This document shows positions 2,490-59,797 of a DNA stretch of 64,000 bases, in pieces. This DNA comes from Pseudomonas sp. JM0905a. Lineage in GTDB: Bacteria > Pseudomonadota > Gammaproteobacteria > Pseudomonadales > Pseudomonadaceae. Under the pieces are notes generated by a model, which saw nothing but the letters and a program-made list of their open reading frames with translations, searched no databases and was not told where the DNA came from. The stretch spans positions 310,001 to 374,000 of the forward strand of contig NZ_JACXBU010000005.1 of assembly GCF_014700075.1 (NCBI RefSeq), in the 5' to 3' direction. The first letter of the stretch is position 1. Each line of letters opens with the position of its first letter. The translations under genes were made by a program, and so were the position numbers.

Positions 2490-3623
2490 ATGAATCGTCC
2501 TTTGCGCATCGCGCTGGTTGCCGGCGAGGCGTCCGGCGATATCCTCGGCTCTACCCTGATGCAGGCGCTCAAGGCGCGCCATCCCGATGTCCAGTTCATC
2601 GGCGTTGGCGGCCCGCGCATGCAGGCTGAAGGGCTGGAGTCCTATTTCCCGATGGAACGCCTGTCGGTCATGGGCCTGGTGGAGGTGCTTGGTCGCCTTC
2701 CAGAGCTGCTGCGTCGGCGCAAGCGGCTGATCCAGACCCTGATCGACGAGCGCCCTGACGTCTTCATCGGCATCGACGCACCGGACTTCAACCTCGGGGT
2801 CGAACTCAAGTTGCGCCGGGCCGGGATCAAGACCGTGCACTACGTCAGCCCGTCGGTCTGGGCCTGGCGGCAGAAGCGTGTGCTGAAGATCCGTGAAGGC
2901 TGCGACCTGATGCTCACGCTCTTCCCCTTCGAGGCGCGCTTCTATGAAGAGCACGGCGTACCGGTGCGCTTCGTCGGCCATCCACTGGCCGATGCCATTC
3001 CGCTGGAAGCGGATCGCGCGGCAGCGCGTGGGCTGCTCGACCTGCCCGAAGACTCCCCCGTGGTAGCGCTGCTGCCCGGAAGCCGGGGCGGCGAAGTCGG
3101 CAAGCTCGGGGCATTGTTCCTCGATGCCGCCGAGCGCCTGCGCTCGATCCGGCCCGGCATCCGTTTCGTCCTGCCTTGCGCAAGCCCGGAGCGGCGTGAA
3201 CAGGTCGAGGCGATGGTGGCTGGCCGTGACCTACCCCTGAAACTGCTGGATGGGCGCTCCCATGAGGCCCTGGCAGCCTGCGACGCGGTGCTGATCGCTT
3301 CCGGCACCGCCACGCTGGAAGCGCTCCTTTACAAGCGTCCGATGGTGGTCGCCTACAAGGTGGCGCCGCTCACGTACCGAATCCTCAAGCGTCTGGTGAA
3401 GAGCCCCTACGTCTCCCTGCCGAACCTGTTGGCCCAGCGCCTGCTCGTGCCCGAGTTGTTGCAGGATGCCGCGACGCCGGAGGCCCTGGCACAGACCGTT
3501 TCGCCGCTGCTGGATGACGGCGAGGTGCAGACCCACGGCTTCGATGTCATTCACCGCTCCCTGCGCCAGGACGCGTCGCGGCAGGCGGCTGACGCCATCC
3601 TGCAACTGATTGGAGTGTCCTGA
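2490..3623 (+). CDS. lpxB: Lipid-A-disaccharide synthase LpxB
   Basis: Condenses UDP-diacyl-glucosamine with lipid X to form the lipid A disaccharide at the inner membrane. The 377 aa (GT19 family) start [20 protein letters not shown], with the family-typical GEASGD motif near the N-terminus. LPGSRGGEV and a later [20 protein letters not shown] segment form the nucleotide-sugar site. An in-frame ATG further upstream (2433) lies inside lpxA. The start at 2490 is preferred because it begins the conserved N-terminus. The stop overlaps the rnhB ATG (TGATG). Confidence 0.96.
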
Positions 3624-4225
3624 TGCAACTCGGTCTGGATTTCAGCCTGGTGGAAGAACTGGTGGCCGGTGTCGACGAAGTCGGCCGCGGCCCGCTCTGT
3701 GGTCCGGTGGTGACGGCTGCAGTGATTCTCGATCCGGCGCGGCCGATCCTCGGTCTGAACGATTCGAAGAAGCTTTCCGAAGCGCGTCGTGATGCGCTGT
3801 TCGACGAAATTCGCGAGAAGGCCCTTGCCTGGTGCATCGCCCGCGCCGAGGTGGAAGAGATCGACCAACTGAACATCCTGCACGCCACCATGCTGGCGAT
3901 GCAGCGTGCGGTGGAAGGGCTCAGCGTGACGCCGAAGCTGGCGCTCATCGACGGCAACCGCTGCCCCAAGCTCAAGGTGCCCAGCGCTCCGGTGGTCAAG
4001 GGCGATAGCCAGGTACCGGCCATCGCCGCGGCTTCCATCCTGGCCAAGGTCAGCCGCGATCGGGAAATGGCCGAGCTGGATGCGACCTACCCCGGTTATG
4101 GCATCGCCGGGCACAAGGGTTATCCCACCGCTGTCCACCTGGAGGCCCTGCGCCGTCTGGGGCCGACCCCCATTCACCGCCGCTCCTTCGGCCCGGTCAG
4201 GGAGCTGATCGAAGGCAGTCGCTGA
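3623..4225 (+). CDS. rnhB: Ribonuclease HII
   Basis: Cleaves the RNA strand of RNA-DNA hybrids and starts removal of misincorporated ribonucleotides. The 200 aa carry the RNase HII signature [17 protein letters not shown] with acidic residues Asp18 and Glu19. The third active-site acid is Asp110 (LALIDGN), and the fourth is likely the Asp in SRDREM. The C-terminal GHKGYPT...HRRSFGP motif is typical. It is the last gene of the overlapping lpx cluster; a 106-base gap to dnaE follows. Confidence 0.96.
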
Positions 4226-4280
4226 GGCCCTGTGTCGCTCCTGTCCGCGACCTTGCCCCAAGCCTGTAGCTTTGTCCGAG

Positions 4281-4300
4281 GGCCCGGTACAATCCGGGCC
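4281..4300 (+). promoter_or_regulatory. Hairpin with embedded -10-like TACAAT before dnaE
   Basis: GGCCCGG and CCGGGCC form a 7-bp stem around TACAAT. The loop itself is a good -10 hexamer, while the 3' side runs into TTGTCGTTTT, so the element could be a dnaE promoter, a weak terminator of the lpx-rnhB unit, or both. No convincing -35 at standard spacing is visible. Confidence 0.35.
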
Positions 4301-4331
4301 TTGTCGTTTTCGCGTTTTGCATAGGACTTCC

Positions 4332-7300
4332 ATGACCGCTTCCTTCGTCCATCTGCGTCTGCATTCCGAATACTCCCTGGTAGACGGCCTGGTGCGGGTC
4401 AAGCCGCTGGTCAAGGCCGTGGCGGGAGCGGGCATGCCGGCGGTGGCGATCACCGACCAGAGCAACATGTGCTCGCTGGTGAAGTTCTACAAGGCCGCCA
4501 TGGGTGGCGGCATCAAGCCCATCTGCGGCGCCGATATCTGGCTCGACAGCCCTGTCGAGGACGGCCCCCTCAGCCGCATGACCCTCCTGGTGATGAATGC
4601 CAAGGGCTATCGCAACCTCACCGAACTGGTTTCCCGTGGCTGGTCCGAAGGTCAGAGCAACGGCCTGGTGATCATCCAGCGCGACTGGGTGAAGGAGGCC
4701 GCCGAAGGCCTGATCGCCCTGTCTGGCGCCAAGGAAGGGGAGATCGGCATGGCCCTGCTCAACGGTGACCAGGCCGGCGCCGAAGCCCTGTTGGCCGAGT
4801 GGCAGTCCGTGTTCCCCGACCGTTTCTACCTGGAGCTTCAGCGTACCGCGCGGGTCAACGACGAGGAGCACGTGCATGCGGCCGTCGCCCTGGCCGATCG
4901 TTGCGGCGCACCACTGGTGGCCACCAACGACGTGCGCTTCATCAAGCCCGACGACTTCGAGGCACACGAAACGCGCGTGTGCATCGGGGAGGGCCGGGTC
5001 CTGGATGACCCTCGTCGCCCGCGCAACTTCTCCGATCAGCAGTACCTCAAGTCCCCAGCGGAGATGGCCGAGCTGTTCGCCGACATCCCCGAGGCCCTGG
5101 AAAACACCGTCGAGATCGCCAAGCGCTGCAACATCGAGGTCCAACTGGGCAAGCACTTCCTGCCCGACTTCCCCACGCCCAACGGCATGAGCATCGACGA
5201 CTACCTGCGTCATGCCTCCTTCGAAGGGCTGGAAGAGCGCCTGGCCGTGCTCTTGCCGAAGGACTCCACGCCTGACTACGAAGAGAAGCGGCAGGTCTAC
5301 ATCGACCGCCTGGAATTCGAACTGGGCACCATCATCCAGATGGGCTTCCCCGGCTACTTCCTGATCGTTGCGGACTTCATCCAGTGGGCCAAGAACAATG
5401 GCGTGCCGGTAGGGCCGGGCCGTGGCTCGGGTGCCGGATCGCTGGTGGCCTACGTGCTGAAGATCACCGACCTCGACCCGCTGGCCTATGACCTGCTGTT
5501 CGAGCGATTCCTCAACCCCGAACGCGTTTCCATGCCTGACTTCGACGTCGACTTCTGCATGGACGGCCGCGACCGGGTGATCGACTACGTGGCCGACAAG
5601 TACGGGCGCAATGCGGTGAGCCAGATCATCACCTTCGGCTCCATGGCAGCCAAGGCGGTGGTGCGCGACGTGGCCCGGGTGCAGGGCAAGTCCTATGGCC
5701 TGGCCGATCGCCTGTCGAAGATGATCCCTTTCGAAGTCGGCATGACCCTGGAGGCGGCCTACAACCAGGAAGAGGTGCTGCGCGACTTCCTCAAGACCGA
5801 CGAGGAAGCCCAGGAAATCTGGGACATGGCCCTGAAACTGGAAGGCATCACCCGCGGTACCGGCAAGCACGCCGGTGGCGTGGTGATCGCACCGACCAAG
5901 CTGACCGACTTCTCGCCGATTGCCTGTGACGAAGAGGGCGCCGGCCTGGTGACCCAGTTCGACAAGGACGACGTGGAGGCCGCTGGCCTGGTGAAGTTCG
6001 ACTTCCTCGGCCTGCGTACCCTGACGATCATCAAGTGGGCCATGGAGATGATCAACCGCGAGCAGGAGAAGCTGGGCAAGCCCCTGGTCGATATCGATCG
6101 CATCCCCCTGGATGACAAGAAAACCTACGACATGCTGCAGAAGGCGGAGACCACCGCGGTCTTCCAGCTCGAATCCCGCGGCATGAAGGAATTGATCAAG
6201 AAGCTCAAGCCGGACTGCCTGGAAGACATGATCGCTCTGGTGGCGCTGTTCCGCCCGGGCCCGCTGCAGTCGGGCATGGTGGACGACTTCATCAACCGCA
6301 AGCACGGTCGCGCGGAGCTTTCCTACCCGCACCCGGATTACCAGTACGCAGGCCTCGAGCCCGTGCTCAAGCCCACCTACGGCATCATCCTGTATCAGGA
6401 ACAGGTGATGCAGATCGCCCAGGTGATGGCGGGCTACACCCTCGGCGGCGCCGACATGCTGCGTCGCGCCATGGGTAAGAAGAAGCCCGAGGAAATGGCC
6501 AAGCAGCGGGGCGGCTTCATCGAAGGTTGCTCCAACAACGGCATCGACCCCAACCTCTCGGGCAACATCTTCGACCTGGTGGAAAAGTTCGCCGGTTACG
6601 GCTTCAACAAATCCCACTCGGCCGCCTACGGCTGGGTTTCCTACCAGACCGCCTGGCTCAAGGCGCACTTCCCGGCGCCCTTCATGGCCGCGGTACTCAC
6701 CGCGGATATGCACAACACCGACAAGGTGGTGACGCTGATCGAAGAATGCCGGCACATGAAGCTGCGCATCGTCGCGCCGGACGTGAACAACTCCGAGTAC
6801 CGCTTCACCGTCGACGATGACGGCCAGATCGTCTACGGCCTGGGCGCCATCAAGGGCGTGGGTGAAGGGCCGGTGGAAGCCATCACCGAGTGCCGTGCCG
6901 AAGGCGGACCCTTCAAGGACCTGTTCGACTTCTGCAACCGCGTCGACCTCAAGCGCATCAACAAGCGCACCCTGGAAGCCCTGATTCGTTGCGGTGCGCT
7001 GGATCGCCTCGGTCCGTTCTTCAGCAACGAGCCCAAGGCCTACCAGGCGGGTATCGACACCAACCGCGCGGTGCTGCTGGCCGCCATGGAAGAAGCCATC
7101 CAGGCCGCAGAGCAGACTGCTCGCAGCCATGACAGCGGCCATATGGACCTCTTCGGCGGCCTGTTCGCCGAGCCGGAGGCGGATGTCTACGCCAATCACC
7201 GCCGGGCCAAGGAAATGTCCCTCAAGGAGCGCCTGAAGGGTGAGAAGGACACCTTGGGCCTGTACCTCACCGGCCACCCGATCGACGAATACGAGGGCGA

Positions 7301-7856
7301 GGTCCGTCGCTTCGCCCGCCAGCGCATCGTCGAGCTGAAGCCGGCGCGGGACACCCAGATCATCGCCGGCCTGATCGTCAACCTGCGGGTGATGAAGAAC
7401 AAGAAGGGCGACAAGATGGGCTTCATTACCCTCGACGACCGTTCCGGCCGTATCGAAGCCTCGCTCTTCGCCGATGCCTTCAACGCTGCCAGCGGCCTGC
7501 TGCAGACCGACGCCATGGTGGTGGTGGAAGGGGAGGTGAGCCACGACGACTTCTCCGGTGGCCTGCGCCTGCGCGCCAAGCGCGTGCTGAGCCTGGAGGA
7601 AGCCCGCACCGGCCTGGCGGAAAGCCTTCGCATGAAGGTCGATTTCAGCGCCCTGCAAGGCGATCGCCTGCGCTGGCTGGCGGAGCTGTGCGGCCGCCAT
7701 CGCGGCTCCTGCCCGCTGACCCTGGACTACAGCGGCAATGACGCGAAGGCCCTGCTGCAGTTCGGCGATAACTGGCGAATCGCACCGGCCGACGCTTTGA
7801 TTCAGGCATTGCGTGACCAGTTCGGGCGCGACAACGTCTTCCTGCACTACCGCTGA
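4332..7856 (+). CDS. dnaE: DNA polymerase III alpha subunit
   Basis: Catalytic subunit of the replicative polymerase. The 1174 aa match proteobacterial DnaE (about 1160-1175). The N-terminal PHP domain (LHSEYSLVDG) is followed by the polymerase core with the catalytic aspartates of PDFDVDF near residues 402-407. The C-terminal third holds the helix-hairpin-helix region and an OB-fold (IIAGLIVNLRVMKNKKGDKMGFITLDD). The conserved beginning MTASFVHLRLHSEYSL and an AGGA 6 bases before the ATG fix the start at 4332 rather than at an upstream in-frame ATG. accA follows after 127 bases. Confidence 0.97.
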   Translation: MTASFVHLRLHSEYSLVDGLVRVKPLVKAVAGAGMPAVAITDQSNMCSLVKFYKAAMGGGIKPICGADIWLDSPVEDGPLSRMTLLVMNAKGYRNLTELVSRGWSEGQSNGLVIIQRDWVKEAAEGLIALSGAKEGEIGMALLNGDQAGAEALLAEWQSVFPDRFYLELQRTARVNDEEHVHAAVALADRCGAPLVATNDVRFIKPDDFEAHETRVCIGEGRVLDDPRRPRNFSDQQYLKSPAEMAELFADIPEALENTVEIAKRCNIEVQLGKHFLPDFPTPNGMSIDDYLRHASFEGLEERLAVLLPKDSTPDYEEKRQVYIDRLEFELGTIIQMGFPGYFLIVADFIQWAKNNGVPVGPGRGSGAGSLVAYVLKITDLDPLAYDLLFERFLNPERVSMPDFDVDFCMDGRDRVIDYVADKYGRNAVSQIITFGSMAAKAVVRDVARVQGKSYGLADRLSKMIPFEVGMTLEAAYNQEEVLRDFLKTDEEAQEIWDMALKLEGITRGTGKHAGGVVIAPTKLTDFSPIACDEEGAGLVTQFDKDDVEAAGLVKFDFLGLRTLTIIKWAMEMINREQEKLGKPLVDIDRIPLDDKKTYDMLQKAETTAVFQLESRGMKELIKKLKPDCLEDMIALVALFRPGPLQSGMVDDFINRKHGRAELSYPHPDYQYAGLEPVLKPTYGIILYQEQVMQIAQVMAGYTLGGADMLRRAMGKKKPEEMAKQRGGFIEGCSNNGIDPNLSGNIFDLVEKFAGYGFNKSHSAAYGWVSYQTAWLKAHFPAPFMAAVLTADMHNTDKVVTLIEECRHMKLRIVAPDVNNSEYRFTVDDDGQIVYGLGAIKGVGEGPVEAITECRAEGGPFKDLFDFCNRVDLKRINKRTLEALIRCGALDRLGPFFSNEPKAYQAGIDTNRAVLLAAMEEAIQAAEQTARSHDSGHMDLFGGLFAEPEADVYANHRRAKEMSLKERLKGEKDTLGLYLTGHPIDEYEGEVRRFARQRIVELKPARDTQIIAGLIVNLRVMKNKKGDKMGFITLDDRSGRIEASLFADAFNAASGLLQTDAMVVVEGEVSHDDFSGGLRLRAKRVLSLEEARTGLAESLRMKVDFSALQGDRLRWLAELCGRHRGSCPLTLDYSGNDAKALLQFGDNWRIAPADALIQALRDQFGRDNVFLHYR

Positions 7857-7983
7857 TGCGAGCGTGATGGCACGCCCGCAACGGCCCGATTTCGATTTGA
7901 TCTCGACCCGAACGCGCCCGATCCCTTAAGGTAGGGCGCCAAATGGAACCAGCCGCCTGGCCCCAAGCGCACGACGGAAGCCT

Positions 7984-8934
7984 ATGAACCCGAACTTTCT
8001 GGATTTCGAACAGCCCATCGCCGATCTGCAAGCCAAGATCGAGGAGCTGCGTCTGGTCGGTAACGACAACGCCCTGAACATCACTGACGAGATCTCTCGC
8101 CTGCAGGAAAAGAGCAGCGCGCTCACCGAGAGCATCTTCGGCAACCTGTCCAGCTGGCAGATTGCCCAACTGGCACGCCACCCGCGCCGGCCCTACACCC
8201 TCGATTACATCGAGCACATCTTCACCGAGTTCGACGAACTGCACGGTGACCGTCACTTCTCCGATGACGCGGCCATCGTCGGCGGCATTGCCCGTCTGAA
8301 CGATCAGCCGGTCATGGTCATCGGTCACCAGAAGGGCCGTGACGTACGCGAAAAGGTTCGCCGCAACTTCGGCATGCCGCGCCCCGAGGGTTATCGCAAG
8401 GCCTGCCGCCTGATGGAAATGGCCGAACGCTTCAAGATGCCGATCCTCACCTTCATCGATACCCCCGGTGCCTACCCGGGCATCGACGCCGAGGAGCGCG
8501 GCCAGAGCGAGGCCATCGCCTGGAACCTGCGTGTCATGGCTCGCCTGAAGACCCCGATTATCGCCACCGTGATCGGTGAAGGCGGTTCCGGCGGCGCCCT
8601 GGCCATTGGTGTTTGCGACCGCCTGAACATGCTGCAGTACTCCACCTACTCGGTGATTTCGCCGGAAGGCTGCGCCTCGATCCTGTGGAAAACCGCCGAG
8701 AAGGCACCGGATGCTGCTGAAGCCATGGGCATCACCGCCGAGCGTCTGAAAGGCCTGGGTATCGTCGACAAAGTGATCGCCGAGCCCCTGGGTGGCGCCC
8801 ATCGCGATCCGGCCGCTGCCGCCGAGTCGATCCGCAACGAGCTCTCCGAGCAGCTGAAGACCCTGCAGAAGCTCAACAACGAGGATCTGCTGGCGCGTCG
8901 TTACGACCGTCTGATGAGCTACGGCGTAGCCTGA
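7984..8934 (+). CDS. accA: Acetyl-CoA carboxylase carboxyltransferase subunit alpha
   Basis: With AccD forms the carboxyltransferase that moves CO2 from biotinyl-AccB to acetyl-CoA, giving malonyl-CoA for fatty acid synthesis. The 316 aa begin with a short coiled segment ([16 protein letters not shown]) followed by the crotonase-like fold. Glycine-rich oxyanion motifs [13 protein letters not shown] and [19 protein letters not shown] are clear. The dnaE-accA-tilS order is usual in gamma-proteobacteria. A strong terminator follows 20 bases after the stop. Confidence 0.97.
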
Positions 8935-8954
8935 CCCCACCAGAAGCTGTAAAG

Positions 8955-8994
8955 ATCGGGCCCCGGCTTTATGCTTGGGGCCCGATTTTTTTTT
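8955..8994 (+). terminator. Rho-independent terminator after accA
   Basis: ATCGGGCCCC (8955-8964) pairs perfectly with GGGGCCCGAT (8977-8986) across a 12-base loop, and a run of eight T follows. It ends the accA transcript 20 bases after its stop and just before the tilS start. Confidence 0.9.
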
Positions 8995-9004
8995 GAGCCG
9001 CACC

Positions 9005-10321
9005 ATGTCCCTCGAGTCCCGCCTTCTGACCGCTCTGGCTCCCTGGCGCCATGCGCCGGCCTGGCACGTCGCCTACTCCGGCGGGCTCGACTCCAGCGTG
9101 TTGCTTCATCTTCTGGTGCGTCTCGCCCGTCGCGAAGTCCTGCCACCGATTTCCGCCACCCACATCCATCATGGCTTGCAGCCTGCTGCTGACGCCTGGC
9201 CTCTGCATTGTCAGCGGGTCTGCGACGAACTGGGCGTGCCACTCAAGGTGGTGCGGGTAAAGGTCGACTCCGGACCCAGTCTGGAAAGGGCCGCCCGGGA
9301 GGCTCGGTACGCCGCCTTCAGTCGTCGGTTGGGAGCGGGCGACGTGCTGCTGAGCGCCCAGCATCGTGACGACCAGGCGGAAACACTGCTCTTCCGCCTG
9401 TTGCGCGGGGCGGGCGTGCGCGGCCTGGCGGGCATGCCGGAGAGCCGCGCTCTGGGGGCGGGCGTCCTGGTCAGGCCATTCCTGCAGTTTTCTCGCTCTG
9501 AGCTGGAGACCTTTGCCCGCGCCGAAGGCCTTGCCTGGGTGGAAGATCCGAGCAATGCCGACACGTCGCTCGCTCGAAACTTTCTCCGTCACGACGTCTT
9601 CCCGGTGTTGCAGGAGCGCTGGCCCAAGGCGGTAGAAAGCCTCGCGCGTAGCGCCGAGCACATGGCCGAGGCGGATAGCCTGCTGGGCGAGCTGGCACGG
9701 GCCGATCTCGACCAGGCGTCGGGCGTCAGCGAATTTCCCTGGCTGACCCTGCCGTCCCTGGAGCTGCAATCGCTCGCGTCCCTCTCGCCGGCCCGGCAGC
9801 GCAATGCACTGCGCTTCTGGCTGGCACCGCTGACCTCACTGCCCGACAGCGACCACTGGGCTGGGTGGGAAGATCTGCGGGACGCGGCGGTCGATGCGAG
9901 GCCGGTCTGGCGTCTGGCCGGTGGCGTGTTGCAGCGCGCCGACGGACGGTTGTGGTGGTTGTCCGGCGACTGGCTCGCCGCACCGGCTTCGAATCTCACC
10001 TGGCTCGACGTTAGTCAGCCGCTTGAACTGCCCGGCAATGGCTGGTTGGAAATCGAGGGGACGCCACCTGCCGGAATGCTCGAAGTCCGCTACCGCCAGG
10101 GCGGCGAGGTGATTACCGTCGCAGGGAGGGGGCGTCGTGATCTCAAGCGGCTGCTCAATGAATCCCGCGTGCCGGCTTTTGTCCGCGGCCGATTGCCGCT
10201 GCTGCTGGTGGACGGTGATCTGCAGGGCATCGCCAATCTTCCCGGCCTGGATGGTCCACCTGCGGGCAACTGGCGGCTACGTTGGACGCCACCGACGAAT
10301 GACCAAGGTTTGAGCTGGTAG
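9005..10321 (+). CDS. tilS: tRNA(Ile)-lysidine synthetase TilS
   Basis: Attaches lysine to C34 of tRNA-Ile(CAU), changing both codon and amino-acid specificity. The 438 aa carry the N-type ATP pyrophosphatase loop SGGLDSS at residues 25-31, then HIHHGL and the HRDDQAETLLFRLLRG motif. TilS substrate-binding and C-terminal domains end in GRGRRDLKRLLNESRVPAFVRGRLPLL. The start MSLESRLLTAL lies right after the accA terminator, so the gene needs its own promoter or read-through. Confidence 0.95.
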   Translation: MSLESRLLTALAPWRHAPAWHVAYSGGLDSSVLLHLLVRLARREVLPPISATHIHHGLQPAADAWPLHCQRVCDELGVPLKVVRVKVDSGPSLERAAREARYAAFSRRLGAGDVLLSAQHRDDQAETLLFRLLRGAGVRGLAGMPESRALGAGVLVRPFLQFSRSELETFARAEGLAWVEDPSNADTSLARNFLRHDVFPVLQERWPKAVESLARSAEHMAEADSLLGELARADLDQASGVSEFPWLTLPSLELQSLASLSPARQRNALRFWLAPLTSLPDSDHWAGWEDLRDAAVDARPVWRLAGGVLQRADGRLWWLSGDWLAAPASNLTWLDVSQPLELPGNGWLEIEGTPPAGMLEVRYRQGGEVITVAGRGRRDLKRLLNESRVPAFVRGRLPLLLVDGDLQGIANLPGLDGPPAGNWRLRWTPPTNDQGLSW

Positions 10322-15066: not shown

Positions 15067-15748
15067 ACCAGGCCGATACTCCCTTCTTCTGGGCGGTAAT
15101 CCCCGCCGCCGGCGTCGGTGCCCGCATGCGCGCCGACCGTCCCAAGCAGTACCTGGAACTTGCCGGACGCACCATTCTCGAGCACAGCCTCGATTGTTTC
15201 CTCGACCATCCGCAGCTCAAGGGGCTGGTGATCAGCCTTTCAGTGGATGATCCCTACTGGCCGGCGCTGCCCTGTGCCAGTGACGAGCGCATCATCCGCG
15301 CTGACGGCGGCAAGGAGCGTGCGGATTCGGTACTCAGCGCCCTGTTGCGACTGGCCGAAAACGGTGCCCGCGCACACGACTGGGTGCTGGTGCATGATGC
15401 GGCCCGGCCGAACCTGTCGCGTTTCGATCTCGACCTGTTGCTTGCTGAATTGGCCGATGACCCGGTGGGCGGCCTGCTCGCCGTTCCCGCACGGGATACC
15501 TTGAAGCGTGCTGGCGCAGATGGGCGAGTGGCGGAAACCGTCGATCGCAGCCTGATCTGGCAGGCCTACACGCCGCAGATGTTCCGCTTCGGCGCATTGC
15601 ATCGTGCGTTGGCCGATGCCCTGGTAGCCGGCGTCGCGATCACCGACGAAGCCTCCGCCATGGAATGGGCCGGCAATGCACCCAAGCTGGTGGAAGGCCG
15701 CGCCGACAACCTCAAGATCACTCGCCCTGAAGACCTCGACTGGTTGCG

Positions 15749-52738: not shown

Positions 52739-52757
52739 GGCACTGCCTGCTTTTTTC

Positions 52758-52855
52758 TGTAGGGGCGAATTCATTCGCCAAGGGCAGCAATGCTGCCCCA
52801 TGCGACTTCTGGGGGCAGACCTGCGGTCTGCTTGGCGAATGAATTCGCCCCTACA
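52758..52855. repeat. 98-base intergenic palindromic element after dinB
   Basis: Outer arms of 25 bases (52758-52782 and 52831-52855, beginning TGTAGGGGCGAATTCATTCG) are perfect inverted repeats. Between them are two small hairpins, GGCAGC/GCTGCC and GCAGACC/GGTCTGC. This is the TGTAGGGGCGAATTCATTCG type of repeat widespread between pseudomonad genes. It may also end dinB and the convergent gene. Confidence 0.85.
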
Positions 52856-54803: not shown

Positions 54804-57566
<2,763 letters not shown>

Positions 57567-57705
57567 GCCCGTCCTCCCCATGGGTTTTCCGCGCAGTGTA
57601 GCGGCTCATTGGATGGGAATCTTGCGGCAGCCTCGTCGAAATTCGTACTCGACAATCCTTTTCATTTGCCGCTGATTTCCATGCTGGCCACTTCCCAGGC
57701 CCCCC

Positions 57706-57889
57706 GTGCGCATCCCTGCCGTCGAGGACGTAGTTGGCTGTCCATCTGCATGAGTACCTTCAGGACGGCGATTTTGACGTCGCGCTGCGCCAGCAGGGCG
57801 AAGAAGGACTGGGGCTGCTCCGTGAGGAAGGCTTCGATCGGATTCTCATGGACATCCTGCAGCCCTGGCAGCTCGGCTGGGGGGCCTGA
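57706..57889 (+). pseudogene. Decayed response-regulator gene (pirR-like relic)
   Basis: A GTG at 57706 starts RIPAVED, a worn version of the receiver beginning RILxVEDD. After GAC (57727-57729) the frame is lost, and the next frame (57734-57889) reads LAVHLHEYLQDGDFDVALRQ, then QGEEGLGLLREEGFDRILMD and ILQPWQLGWGA before TGA, which follows a receiver through its phospho-Asp (LMDIL). The HTH half is missing. Frameshift and truncation mark a pseudogene. In P. aeruginosa pirR lies here, divergent from gacS. The remaining bases between gacS and piuC show no other feature. Confidence 0.7.
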
Positions 57890-57923
57890 CTCGCGTCCGG
57901 GCTTTGTACAGGAGGTGCGTTGG

Positions 57924-58604
57924 TTACACCTCGGCCCAGCGCCGCAGCAGGTTGTGGTAATTGCCGGTCAGCCGGACCAGAGCAGGGTGGTCCGGTACGT
58001 CACGAGCCAGGCTCTGGATCGCCTGATCCATGTCGAACAGCAGGGCGCGCTGGCTGTCTTCGCGGATCATGCTCTGGATCCAGAAGAAGGACGCCAGGCG
58101 AGCGCCCCGGGTGACCGGTTCCACCTGGTGGAGGCTGCTGGCGGGATAGACCACCAGGTCGCCGGCGGCCAGCTTCACGCGGTGTTCGCCGTAGGTGTCC
58201 TGGATCACCAGGTCGCCACCGTCGTACGACTCCGGTTCGCTGAAGAACAGGGTGGCGGAGACATCGGTGCGCACCTGCTCGGGGCTGCCCTTGATCGCAC
58301 GCACAGCATTGTCGATGTGGTAACCGAACGCGCCGCCACCGCTGTAGCGGTTGAACAGGGGCGGGTAGACCTTGTTCGGCAGTACTGCGGAGATGAACAG
58401 CGGGTTGTTCCACAGGCGTTGCAGCATGGCGGCACTGATTTCGCGGGCCAGTGGGTCGCCTTCCGCCAGTTGCTGGTTGTTCTTGGTCTTGGCCGACTGA
58501 TAGCCGGCGGTGACCTTGCCGTCCTGCCATTCGGCCTGCTCCAGTGCTTCGCGGATTCGCGCTGCCTCTTCCGTCGTGAAGATTCCGGGGATGTGCAGGA
58601 GCAT
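57924..58604 (-). CDS. piuC: Fe(II)/2-oxoglutarate-dependent dioxygenase PiuC
   Basis: 226-aa PKHD-type hydroxylase. The iron-binding facial triad is His96, Asp98 (GYHIDNA) and His159 ([10 protein letters not shown]), with 2-oxoglutarate-binding Arg169 (GARLASF). Family members lie beside TonB-dependent iron or xenosiderophore receptors (PiuA, PirA, Fiu) and are Fur-repressed. Here no receptor remains nearby, but a Fur-like site lies upstream. Its 3' end faces the response-regulator relic 35 bases away. Confidence 0.9.
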
Positions 58605-58637
58605 GGCGGTCTACCGGGGTTGGGTGGAGTGGAGGCG

Positions 58638-58657
58638 AATAGTATTTATTTCCATTA
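58638..58657 (-). promoter_or_regulatory. Candidate Fur box upstream of piuC
   Basis: On the minus strand TTAATGGAAATAAATACTAT is an AT-rich partial match to the Fur consensus (7-1-7 form of GATAATGATAATCATTATC), about 35-55 bases before the piuC ATG. Regulation by iron is expected for the family; the site itself is only a moderate match. Confidence 0.5.
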
Positions 58658-58763
58658 ACGCTGTACATCGGCAACGGTTGGGCGGGCTCGTCGGAATCGC
58701 TGGTGGCTTCATTCCTATCCGCAGGATTCGGAGCTTCCCAGGGCCGGTTGGTGCGCAGGTGGC

Positions 58764-58888: not shown

Positions 58889-59797
58889 ATGACTCTGCAG
58901 TACCCCACAATTGCCGATTGCATCGGCCACACCCCGCTGGTGCGTTTGCAGCGCCTGGCTGGCGAAACCAGCAACACCCTCCTGGTCAAGCTCGAAGGCA
59001 ACAACCCCGCCGGTTCGGTCAAGGATCGCCCGGCGCTGTCGATGATCACTCGCGCCGAACTGCGCGGTGACATCCAGCCCGGTGACACCCTGATCGAGGC
59101 CACTTCCGGCAACACCGGCATCGCCCTGGCCATGGCTGCGGCCATCAAGGGTTACAAGATGATGCTGATCATGCCGGACAACATGAGCGCCGAGCGCAAG
59201 GCCGCCATGACCGCCTATGGCGCCGAGCTGATCCTGGTCAGCCGCGAAGAGGGTATGGAAGGCGCTCGTGATCTCGCCGAAAGCCTGCAGCGCGGCGGCC
59301 GTGGCAAGGTGCTGGACCAGTTCGCCAACGGCGACAACCCCGAAGCCCACTACGTCGGCACCGGCCCGGAAATCTGGCAGCAGACCCAGGGCACCATCAC
59401 CCATTTCGTCAGTTCCATGGGTACCACCGGCACCATCATGGGTGTATCGCGCTACCTCAAGGAGCAGAACCCGGCGATCCAGATCGTCGGCCTGCAACCG
59501 CAGGAAGGTTCGGCCATTCCCGGTATCCGCCGCTGGCCCCAGGAATACCTGCCGAAGATCTACCAGGCCGAGCGCGTCGATCGCGTGGTCGACATGGCCC
59601 AGATCGAAGCCGAGGAAACCATGCGCCGCCTGGCCCGCGAAGAAGGCATCTTCTGCGGCGTTTCCTCCGGTGGTGCGGTCGCAGCCATGCTGCGCTTGTC
59701 CCGTGAAGTGGAAAACGCCGTGATGGTCGCGATCATCTGCGACCGTGGCGACCGTTATCTCTCCACTGGCATCTACGAAGACCCTGAACGGCTGTGA
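58889..59797 (+). CDS. cysM: Cysteine synthase B
   Basis: PLP-dependent synthesis of cysteine from O-acetylserine and sulfide or thiosulfate. 302 aa. The PLP lysine is Lys45 in NPAGSVKDRPAL. TSGNTGIALA is the substrate loop, and GTTGTIMGVSRYL binds the PLP phosphate. The CysM-type features EGMEGARD and RRWPQEYLP separate it from CysK. The order gacS-...-cysM-rlmD-relA-mazG matches P. aeruginosa. Confidence 0.95.
   Translation: MTLQYPTIADCIGHTPLVRLQRLAGETSNTLLVKLEGNNPAGSVKDRPALSMITRAELRGDIQPGDTLIEATSGNTGIALAMAAAIKGYKMMLIMPDNMSAERKAAMTAYGAELILVSREEGMEGARDLAESLQRGGRGKVLDQFANGDNPEAHYVGTGPEIWQQTQGTITHFVSSMGTTGTIMGVSRYLKEQNPAIQIVGLQPQEGSAIPGIRRWPQEYLPKIYQAERVDRVVDMAQIEAEETMRRLAREEGIFCGVSSGGAVAAMLRLSREVENAVMVAIICDRGDRYLSTGIYEDPERL

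What the first reader, a model, noticed from the sequence alone, without database searches (positions are those of the whole stretch)
57706..57889. Frameshifted response-regulator relic between gacS and piuC
Seen: two adjacent frames together spell a receiver domain from RIPAVED through GFDRILMDILQPW, with a frame break after 57729 and loss of the DNA-binding half. Known: P. aeruginosa carries pirR-pirS-pirA between gacS and cysM (from memory). Inference: this lineage lost a two-component-regulated TonB siderophore-receptor locus, leaving this scar and a possibly orphaned piuC. The fragment records a change in iron-uptake strategy.
Basis: partly seen in the sequence, partly recalled or inferred. 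Interest (0 to 1): 0.6.

Follow-up and report, generated by a model that had tools for sequence, protein, structure and literature searches.

The report
Remnant of deleted iron-uptake regulator pirR
The fragment is the dead front quarter of pirR, a gene that switches on uptake of iron bound to catechols; this bacterium and its two nearest relatives lost the whole pir locus, but kept one intact neighbour, piuC, which is now the only copy of that gene in the genome.

Summary
Window 57681-57865 is a pseudogene fragment holding codons 1-63 of an OmpR-type response regulator, broken by two frame breaks and orthologous to pirR. Eight of 18 genomes of the same genus carry intact pirR-pirS at exactly this place (gacS-cysM); the two nearest relatives carry the same truncated fragment. 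The window genome has no PirR, PirS, PirA or PiuE ortholog.

Two corrections. (1) In this genus a piu module (piuE-piuC, divergent from a piuA/piuD-type receptor) sat inside the same interval. (2) piuC is not a decaying orphan: it is the genome's only piuC, is under purifying selection (dN/dS 0.06-0.10) and keeps a Fur-box-like site. A PiuA/Fiu-family receptor survives on another contig, at a locus whose own piuC paralog is gone. Every genome of the genus keeps at least one of the two piuC copies; 17 of 18 keep exactly one. I infer that this PiuC serves the remote receptor in trans; that is untested.

The scar itself is ordinary. The recurrent loss here (about seven losses of pirR in 18 genomes) and the alternative retention of piuC are the new parts.

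The parts
57681..57865 (+). pirR relic: codons 1-63 (half of the receiver domain), with two frame breaks (in the C-run near 57700 and near 57730)
   Evidence: 66% identity to PirR of G005 over codons 20-63; colinear with G015/G003 remnants and with intact pirR of G005/G006/G007/G016
57866..57923 (.). Deletion-junction sequence between the relic and the piuC stop; in relatives piuE starts directly after the piuC stop
   Evidence: no piuE start in G000, G015 or G003; piuE start present within a few bases in G007, G005, G011, G012 and G006
57651..57669 (+). Fur-box-like site upstream of the relic (13 of 19 matches to consensus), at the same place upstream of intact pirR in relatives
   Evidence: only 5 of about 64,000 window 19-mers score 13 or more; relatives score 9-13
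57924..58604 (-). piuC, intact Fe(II)/2-oxoglutarate dioxygenase (PKHD type), only copy in the genome
   Evidence: PF13640, PF18331 above cutoff; single copy; solved PiuC, E 7e-113; dN/dS 0.06-0.10; HxD...H: H96, D98, H159
58641..58659 (-). Fur-box-like site upstream of piuC (12 of 19 matches), with an overlapping 11 of 19 site 6 bases away
   Evidence: 12-13 of 19 sites upstream of piuC in all nine other genomes examined
54804..57581 (-). gacS, left flank of the locus
58889..59797 (+). cysM, right flank of the locus

Best explanation
The fragment is the decaying 5' end of pirR. An ancestor of the window's clade carried, between gacS and cysM, pirR-pirS (with or without pirA and a PepSY-type gene) followed by piuE-piuC and a divergent piuA/piuD-type receptor gene. 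In the common ancestor of G000, G015 and G003 a deletion ran from pirR codon ~63 to just behind the piuC stop, and the receptor gene between piuC and cysM was removed separately. The stump then decayed independently: frame breaks in G000, a stop codon in G003. piuC was kept, most likely because the second piuC, in the speC-side locus, had also been lost. The surviving PiuC, still preceded by a Fur-box-like site, most likely works with the PiuA/Fiu-family receptor encoded on contig C11. Shown: homology, synteny, clade-specific truncation, genome-wide absence of PirR/PirS/PirA/PiuE, purifying selection on piuC and its single copy. Inferred: order of deletions, Fur control, and PiuC serving the remote receptor (my probability for that last step about 0.45; the confidence below is for the relic and locus-loss part).
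For: Intact pirR at this place in 8 of 18 congeners and in P. insulae; shared truncation at codon 63 in the monophyletic trio G000, G015, G003 (bootstrap 100); no PirR/PirS/PirA/PiuE ortholog in the genome; relic differs between G015 and G003 by 6/8/11 changes at former codon positions 1/2/3 against 5/4/19 between intact G005 and G007 copies; stop in G003 and frame breaks in G000; piuC dN/dS 0.06-0.10; exactly one PiuC in 17 of 18 genomes and never none; in G003 the speC-side locus keeps its first receptor and the next gene but lacks piuC between them; literature: the PiuC homolog CciO is strictly required for its receptor CciT (PMC12004947), and PirR controls both pirA and piuA in P. aeruginosa (PMC9426570).
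Against: The extent of the deletion is uncertain: sister-clade member G007 has no pirA, so the clade's last intact locus may already have lacked it. The lack of any double loss of piuC is only moderately unlikely under independent losses (P 0.05, or 0.012 conditioned on copy counts), and 36 of 119 family genomes have no PiuC at all, so PiuC is not universally needed. No expression or functional data.
Confidence: 0.9

Rival explanations
1. The stump is not dead: a truncated receiver of about 50-70 residues is still made and acts as a small decoy or phosphate sink.
For: G015 keeps an open frame of about 70 codons with the phospho-acceptor aspartate region; ORF 57734-57889 exists in the window.
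Against: Two frame breaks in G000 and an in-frame stop in G003; the substitution pattern is close to neutral; only half of a receiver fold remains; no PirS is left to phosphorylate it.
Confidence: 0.04
2. piuC is a passenger on its way out, not a functional survivor.
For: Its usual partners piuE and the adjacent receptor are gone in this clade.
Against: dN/dS 0.06-0.10 within and around the clade, intact metal ligands, conserved promoter-proximal Fur-like site, sole copy.
Confidence: 0.1
3. The interval never held pirR in this lineage; the fragment is a stray piece of another OmpR-type regulator.
For: Pfam alone only gives a weak Response_reg match.
Against: Same position, orientation and distance from gacS as intact pirR; alignable upstream region with the Fur-like site; 66% identity to PirR; shared by two sister genomes.
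Confidence: 0.02

Closest known systems
pirR-pirS-pirA locus of Pseudomonas aeruginosa (catechol-responsive two-component system and TonB receptor)
   Same: Same gene at the same place next to gacS (P. aeruginosa position from memory); the relatives' receptor best matches solved PirA 5fp2; Fur-box-like site upstream of pirR as reported for P. aeruginosa (PMC9426570)
   Different: In the window only codons 1-63 survive, broken; pirS and pirA are gone; in this genus a piu module lies in the same interval, whereas in P. aeruginosa the piu locus is not linked to a two-component system (PMC9426570)
piuA-piuC / fiu-ybiX / cciT-cciO receptor-dioxygenase pairs
   Same: piuC is intact and close to solved P. 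aeruginosa PiuC; a PiuA/Fiu-family receptor exists in the genome
   Different: Receptor and dioxygenase are not neighbours here: they sit on different contigs and derive from two different ancestral loci
pirR frameshift alleles of clinical P. aeruginosa
   Same: Loss of pirR by frame breaks, reported in a poly(dC) tract (PMC10546814)
   Different: Here an older, clade-level deletion of most of the locus, not a recent point event

Membership tests
pirR ortholog (pseudogene) | Homology to the PirR receiver domain | tested here: met
   66% identity over 44 codons, E 4e-13
pirR ortholog (pseudogene) | Position next to gacS, same orientation as intact pirR of relatives | tested here: met
Functional OmpR-type response regulator | Complete receiver plus winged-helix DNA-binding domain in one open frame | tested here: not met
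   Two frame breaks, codons after ~63 absent
PirRS-PirA locus | Cognate kinase PirS and receptor PirA present | tested here: not met
   No match in G000 at E 1e-60
PiuC (PKHD-type Fe(II)/2OG dioxygenase) | 2OG-FeII_Oxy and PKHD_C domains, HxD...H ligands | tested here: met
PiuC (PKHD-type Fe(II)/2OG dioxygenase) | Functional partnership with a TonB receptor | not testable with these tools
   A receptor exists at L048:6469-8673 but partnership needs genetics

The most novel reading that the evidence does not exclude
In this genus two diverged piuC paralogs, one in the gacS-cysM pir/piu locus and one in the speC-side receptor locus, are interchangeable, and each lineage is constrained to keep one; the window's PiuC therefore serves, in trans, a receptor from the other locus, while the catechol-sensing PirRS and PirA have been lost several times independently (about seven by parsimony).
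Probability: 0.45. Interest if true: 0.5.

Novelty: new member of a known kind. Interest (0 to 1): 0.37.

Why it matters
PirA and PiuA are main entry routes for plant catechols and siderophore-antibiotic conjugates in P. aeruginosa, and PirR controls both (PMC9426570). A genus in which the locus has been lost repeatedly is a natural experiment on when that route is dispensable, and the alternative retention of one piuC makes the open question of what PiuC does for its receptor testable with natural unlinked pairs. The physical joining of pir and piu in this genus also fits the reported regulatory cross-talk between the two loci in P. aeruginosa.

Tried and rejected
Naming the window organism: the genome-contig scan leaves it out; the nearest named relative is Pseudomonas sp. 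BN411 (G015, L065). A literature search for PiuC with 2-oxoglutarate gave nothing, and none for Metapseudomonas with TonB receptors; that genus name is only a guess and is not claimed. I looked for a leftover of the piuA/piuD-type receptor between piuC and cysM: none in G000, although G012 keeps a 45-codon scrap. The idea that the relic is a conserved small protein was rejected on lesions and substitution pattern. The deletion endpoints could not be assigned to a direct repeat because the ancestral sequence is unknown.

Full report
What is there. Between gacS (54804-57581, minus strand) and cysM (58889-59797, plus strand) the window holds one intact gene, piuC (57924-58604, minus strand), and beside it, on the plus strand, broken coding sequence. 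Pfam alone recognises this only weakly as Response_reg (E 0.0024, or 0.0011 with the two pieces read together), which is expected for a 50-residue fragment.

Identity. I compared the gacS-cysM interval in all 18 genomes of the window's genus held. In G005 the interval runs gacS, pirR (237 aa), pirS (450 aa), a TonB receptor (755 aa), further genes including a PepSY protein, a piuE-like TPR gene, piuC, cysM. The fragment aligns with that pirR at 66% over codons 20-63 (E 4e-13), and in G015 and G003 the same place aligns with codons 1-63 without a break (E 2e-21, 5e-22). A nucleotide alignment places all three on intact pirR of G005, G006, G007 and G016 from the start codon (window 57681) to about codon 63, with the upstream region also alignable. 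The receptor of G005 is PirA-type: its best solved match is PirA 5fp2 (E 1e-276).

State of the locus across the genus. Full set with pirR, pirS, pirA, PepSY, piuE, piuC and a piuA/piuD-type receptor: G006, G008 and G009 (in G009 the pirA and PepSY matches are split into two pieces). pirR, pirS, piuE, piuC and the receptor without pirA: G007, G017, and, outside the genus, Pseudomonas insulae (L066). pirR, pirS, pirA, PepSY, piuE, piuC without the second receptor: G005. pirR, pirS, pirA and PepSY only: G016; the same plus piuE: G004. Stump of pirR plus piuC: G000 (window), G015, G003. piuE and piuC with scraps of pirS and of the receptor: G012. An 18-codon scrap of pirR with piuE and piuC: G011. 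piuE only: G010, G002. Nothing: G013, G014, G001. The second receptor matches solved structures 5nec (E 5e-296) and 5fok, which I recall as P. aeruginosa PiuD and PiuA.

Number of losses. A tree from gacS, cysM, rlmD and relA (5358 aligned bases) puts G000, G015 and G003 together (100) with G007+G012 as sister (91; that pair 100). Parsimony allowing only losses needs seven losses of pirR. Some deep nodes are weak, but the pairs G012/G007 and G014/G016, each with one intact and one lost pirR, stand at 100, so several losses are independent. In other genera of the family pirR lies within 15 kb of cysM, on the same strand and upstream of it, for example in all 12 genomes sampled of genus g9 (coordinates), which supports an old presence of pirR here. 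I did not check for gacS on the other side in those.

The stump is dead. G003 has an in-frame stop, G000 two frame breaks; only G015 is open. Between the G015 and G003 stumps the changes at former codon positions 1, 2, 3 are 6, 8, 11, against 5, 4, 19 between intact pirR of G005 and G007; with 63 codons this is indicative only. G000 has no pirR, pirS, pirA or piuE ortholog elsewhere, and no receptor of the wider PirA/PfeA kind at E 1e-60. A Fur-box-like site (13 of 19) remains upstream of the stump at 57651-57669.

piuC is alive. It has both PiuC domains, matches solved PiuC (E 7e-113), keeps H96, D98 and H159, and shows dN/dS 0.06-0.10 in and around the clade. It is the only PiuC in the genome. 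A 12 of 19 Fur-like site lies upstream (58641-58659) and similar sites recur upstream of piuC in relatives.

Why piuC was kept. A second piuC paralog, 58-62% identical, occurs in a different locus: prfC, speC, receptor A1, piuC-A, an FMN-dehydrogenase-like gene, receptor A2, PepSY (gene names for prfC, speC and the dehydrogenase by recognition, not tested). Receptor A2 is of the PiuA/Fiu family (5fok E 1e-153) and is present in all 15 genomes in which I fetched this locus, including the window genome (G000 contig C11; L048:6469-8673). Every genome of the genus has a PiuC at one locus or the other; only G006 has both. G003 keeps receptor A1 and the next gene but lacks piuC-A between them. A Fisher test of the two copies gives P 2.5e-4 but ignores relatedness; simulating independent irreversible losses on the tree gives no double-absent genome in 5% of runs, or 1.2% when copy counts are held near those observed. 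Alternative retention is therefore suggested, not proven. In the wider family 83 of 119 genomes have a PiuC, nearly always one, and 36 have none.

Mechanism. In Caulobacter the receptor CciT strictly needs the dioxygenase CciO, a PiuC homolog (PMC12004947). In P. aeruginosa PirR, under the kinase PirS responding to plant catechols, activates both pirA and piuA, and the piu locus is not linked to a two-component system (PMC9426570). From this I infer that the window's clade has lost catechol sensing and the PirA route, and runs a receptor-dioxygenase pair assembled from two loci: receptor A2 and the gacS-side PiuC. The deletion ran from pirR codon ~63 to just behind the piuC stop, because piuE starts directly after the piuC stop in relatives and is absent here. 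Its length cannot be fixed, since the ancestor may have resembled G007 (without pirA) or G005.

Placement. The stump is a pseudogene of a known regulator, so the kind is known. What I did not find in the papers searched is the presence of the piu module inside the pir locus in this genus, the repeated loss there, and the alternative retention of piuC. pirR frameshifts are known in clinical P. aeruginosa, in a poly(dC) tract (PMC10546814); the loss here is larger and shared by a clade.

Noticed in passing
L066:6421-16439 (Pseudomonas insulae): Outside the genus the same joined order gacS, pirR, pirS, piuE, piuC, divergent piuA/piuD-type receptor, cysM occurs, so pirRS and piu may have been linked before the genus arose.
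   Followed up: partly
L063:4560-9323 and L064:6495-11264 (G008, G017): A second regulator-kinase-receptor set, about 50-58% identical to PirR-PirS-PirA, in G008, G009 and G017; probably the PfeR-PfeS-PfeA type. The window genome has none.
   Followed up: partly
L050:6391-9850 (G003): Absence of piuC between receptor A1 and the FMN-dehydrogenase-like gene, leaving about 150 bases, while relatives have piuC there.
   Followed up: partly
window 55173-58658, plus strand: A 1161-codon open frame runs antisense to gacS, across the pirR stump and antisense to piuC; likely a by-product of high G+C codon bias.
   Followed up: no
window 52757-52855 and L048:11546-11571, 15307-15405: A sequence of about 25 bases recurs, also as an inverted pair, at several places in this genome and its relatives; looks like a dispersed palindromic repeat.
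   Followed up: partly
L038 (G009), interval turned so that gacS is at the left: 3299-9012: The pirA and PepSY matches are each split into two frames in G009 while intact in its near twin G008: the locus may be decaying there now, or the assembly has errors.
   Followed up: no
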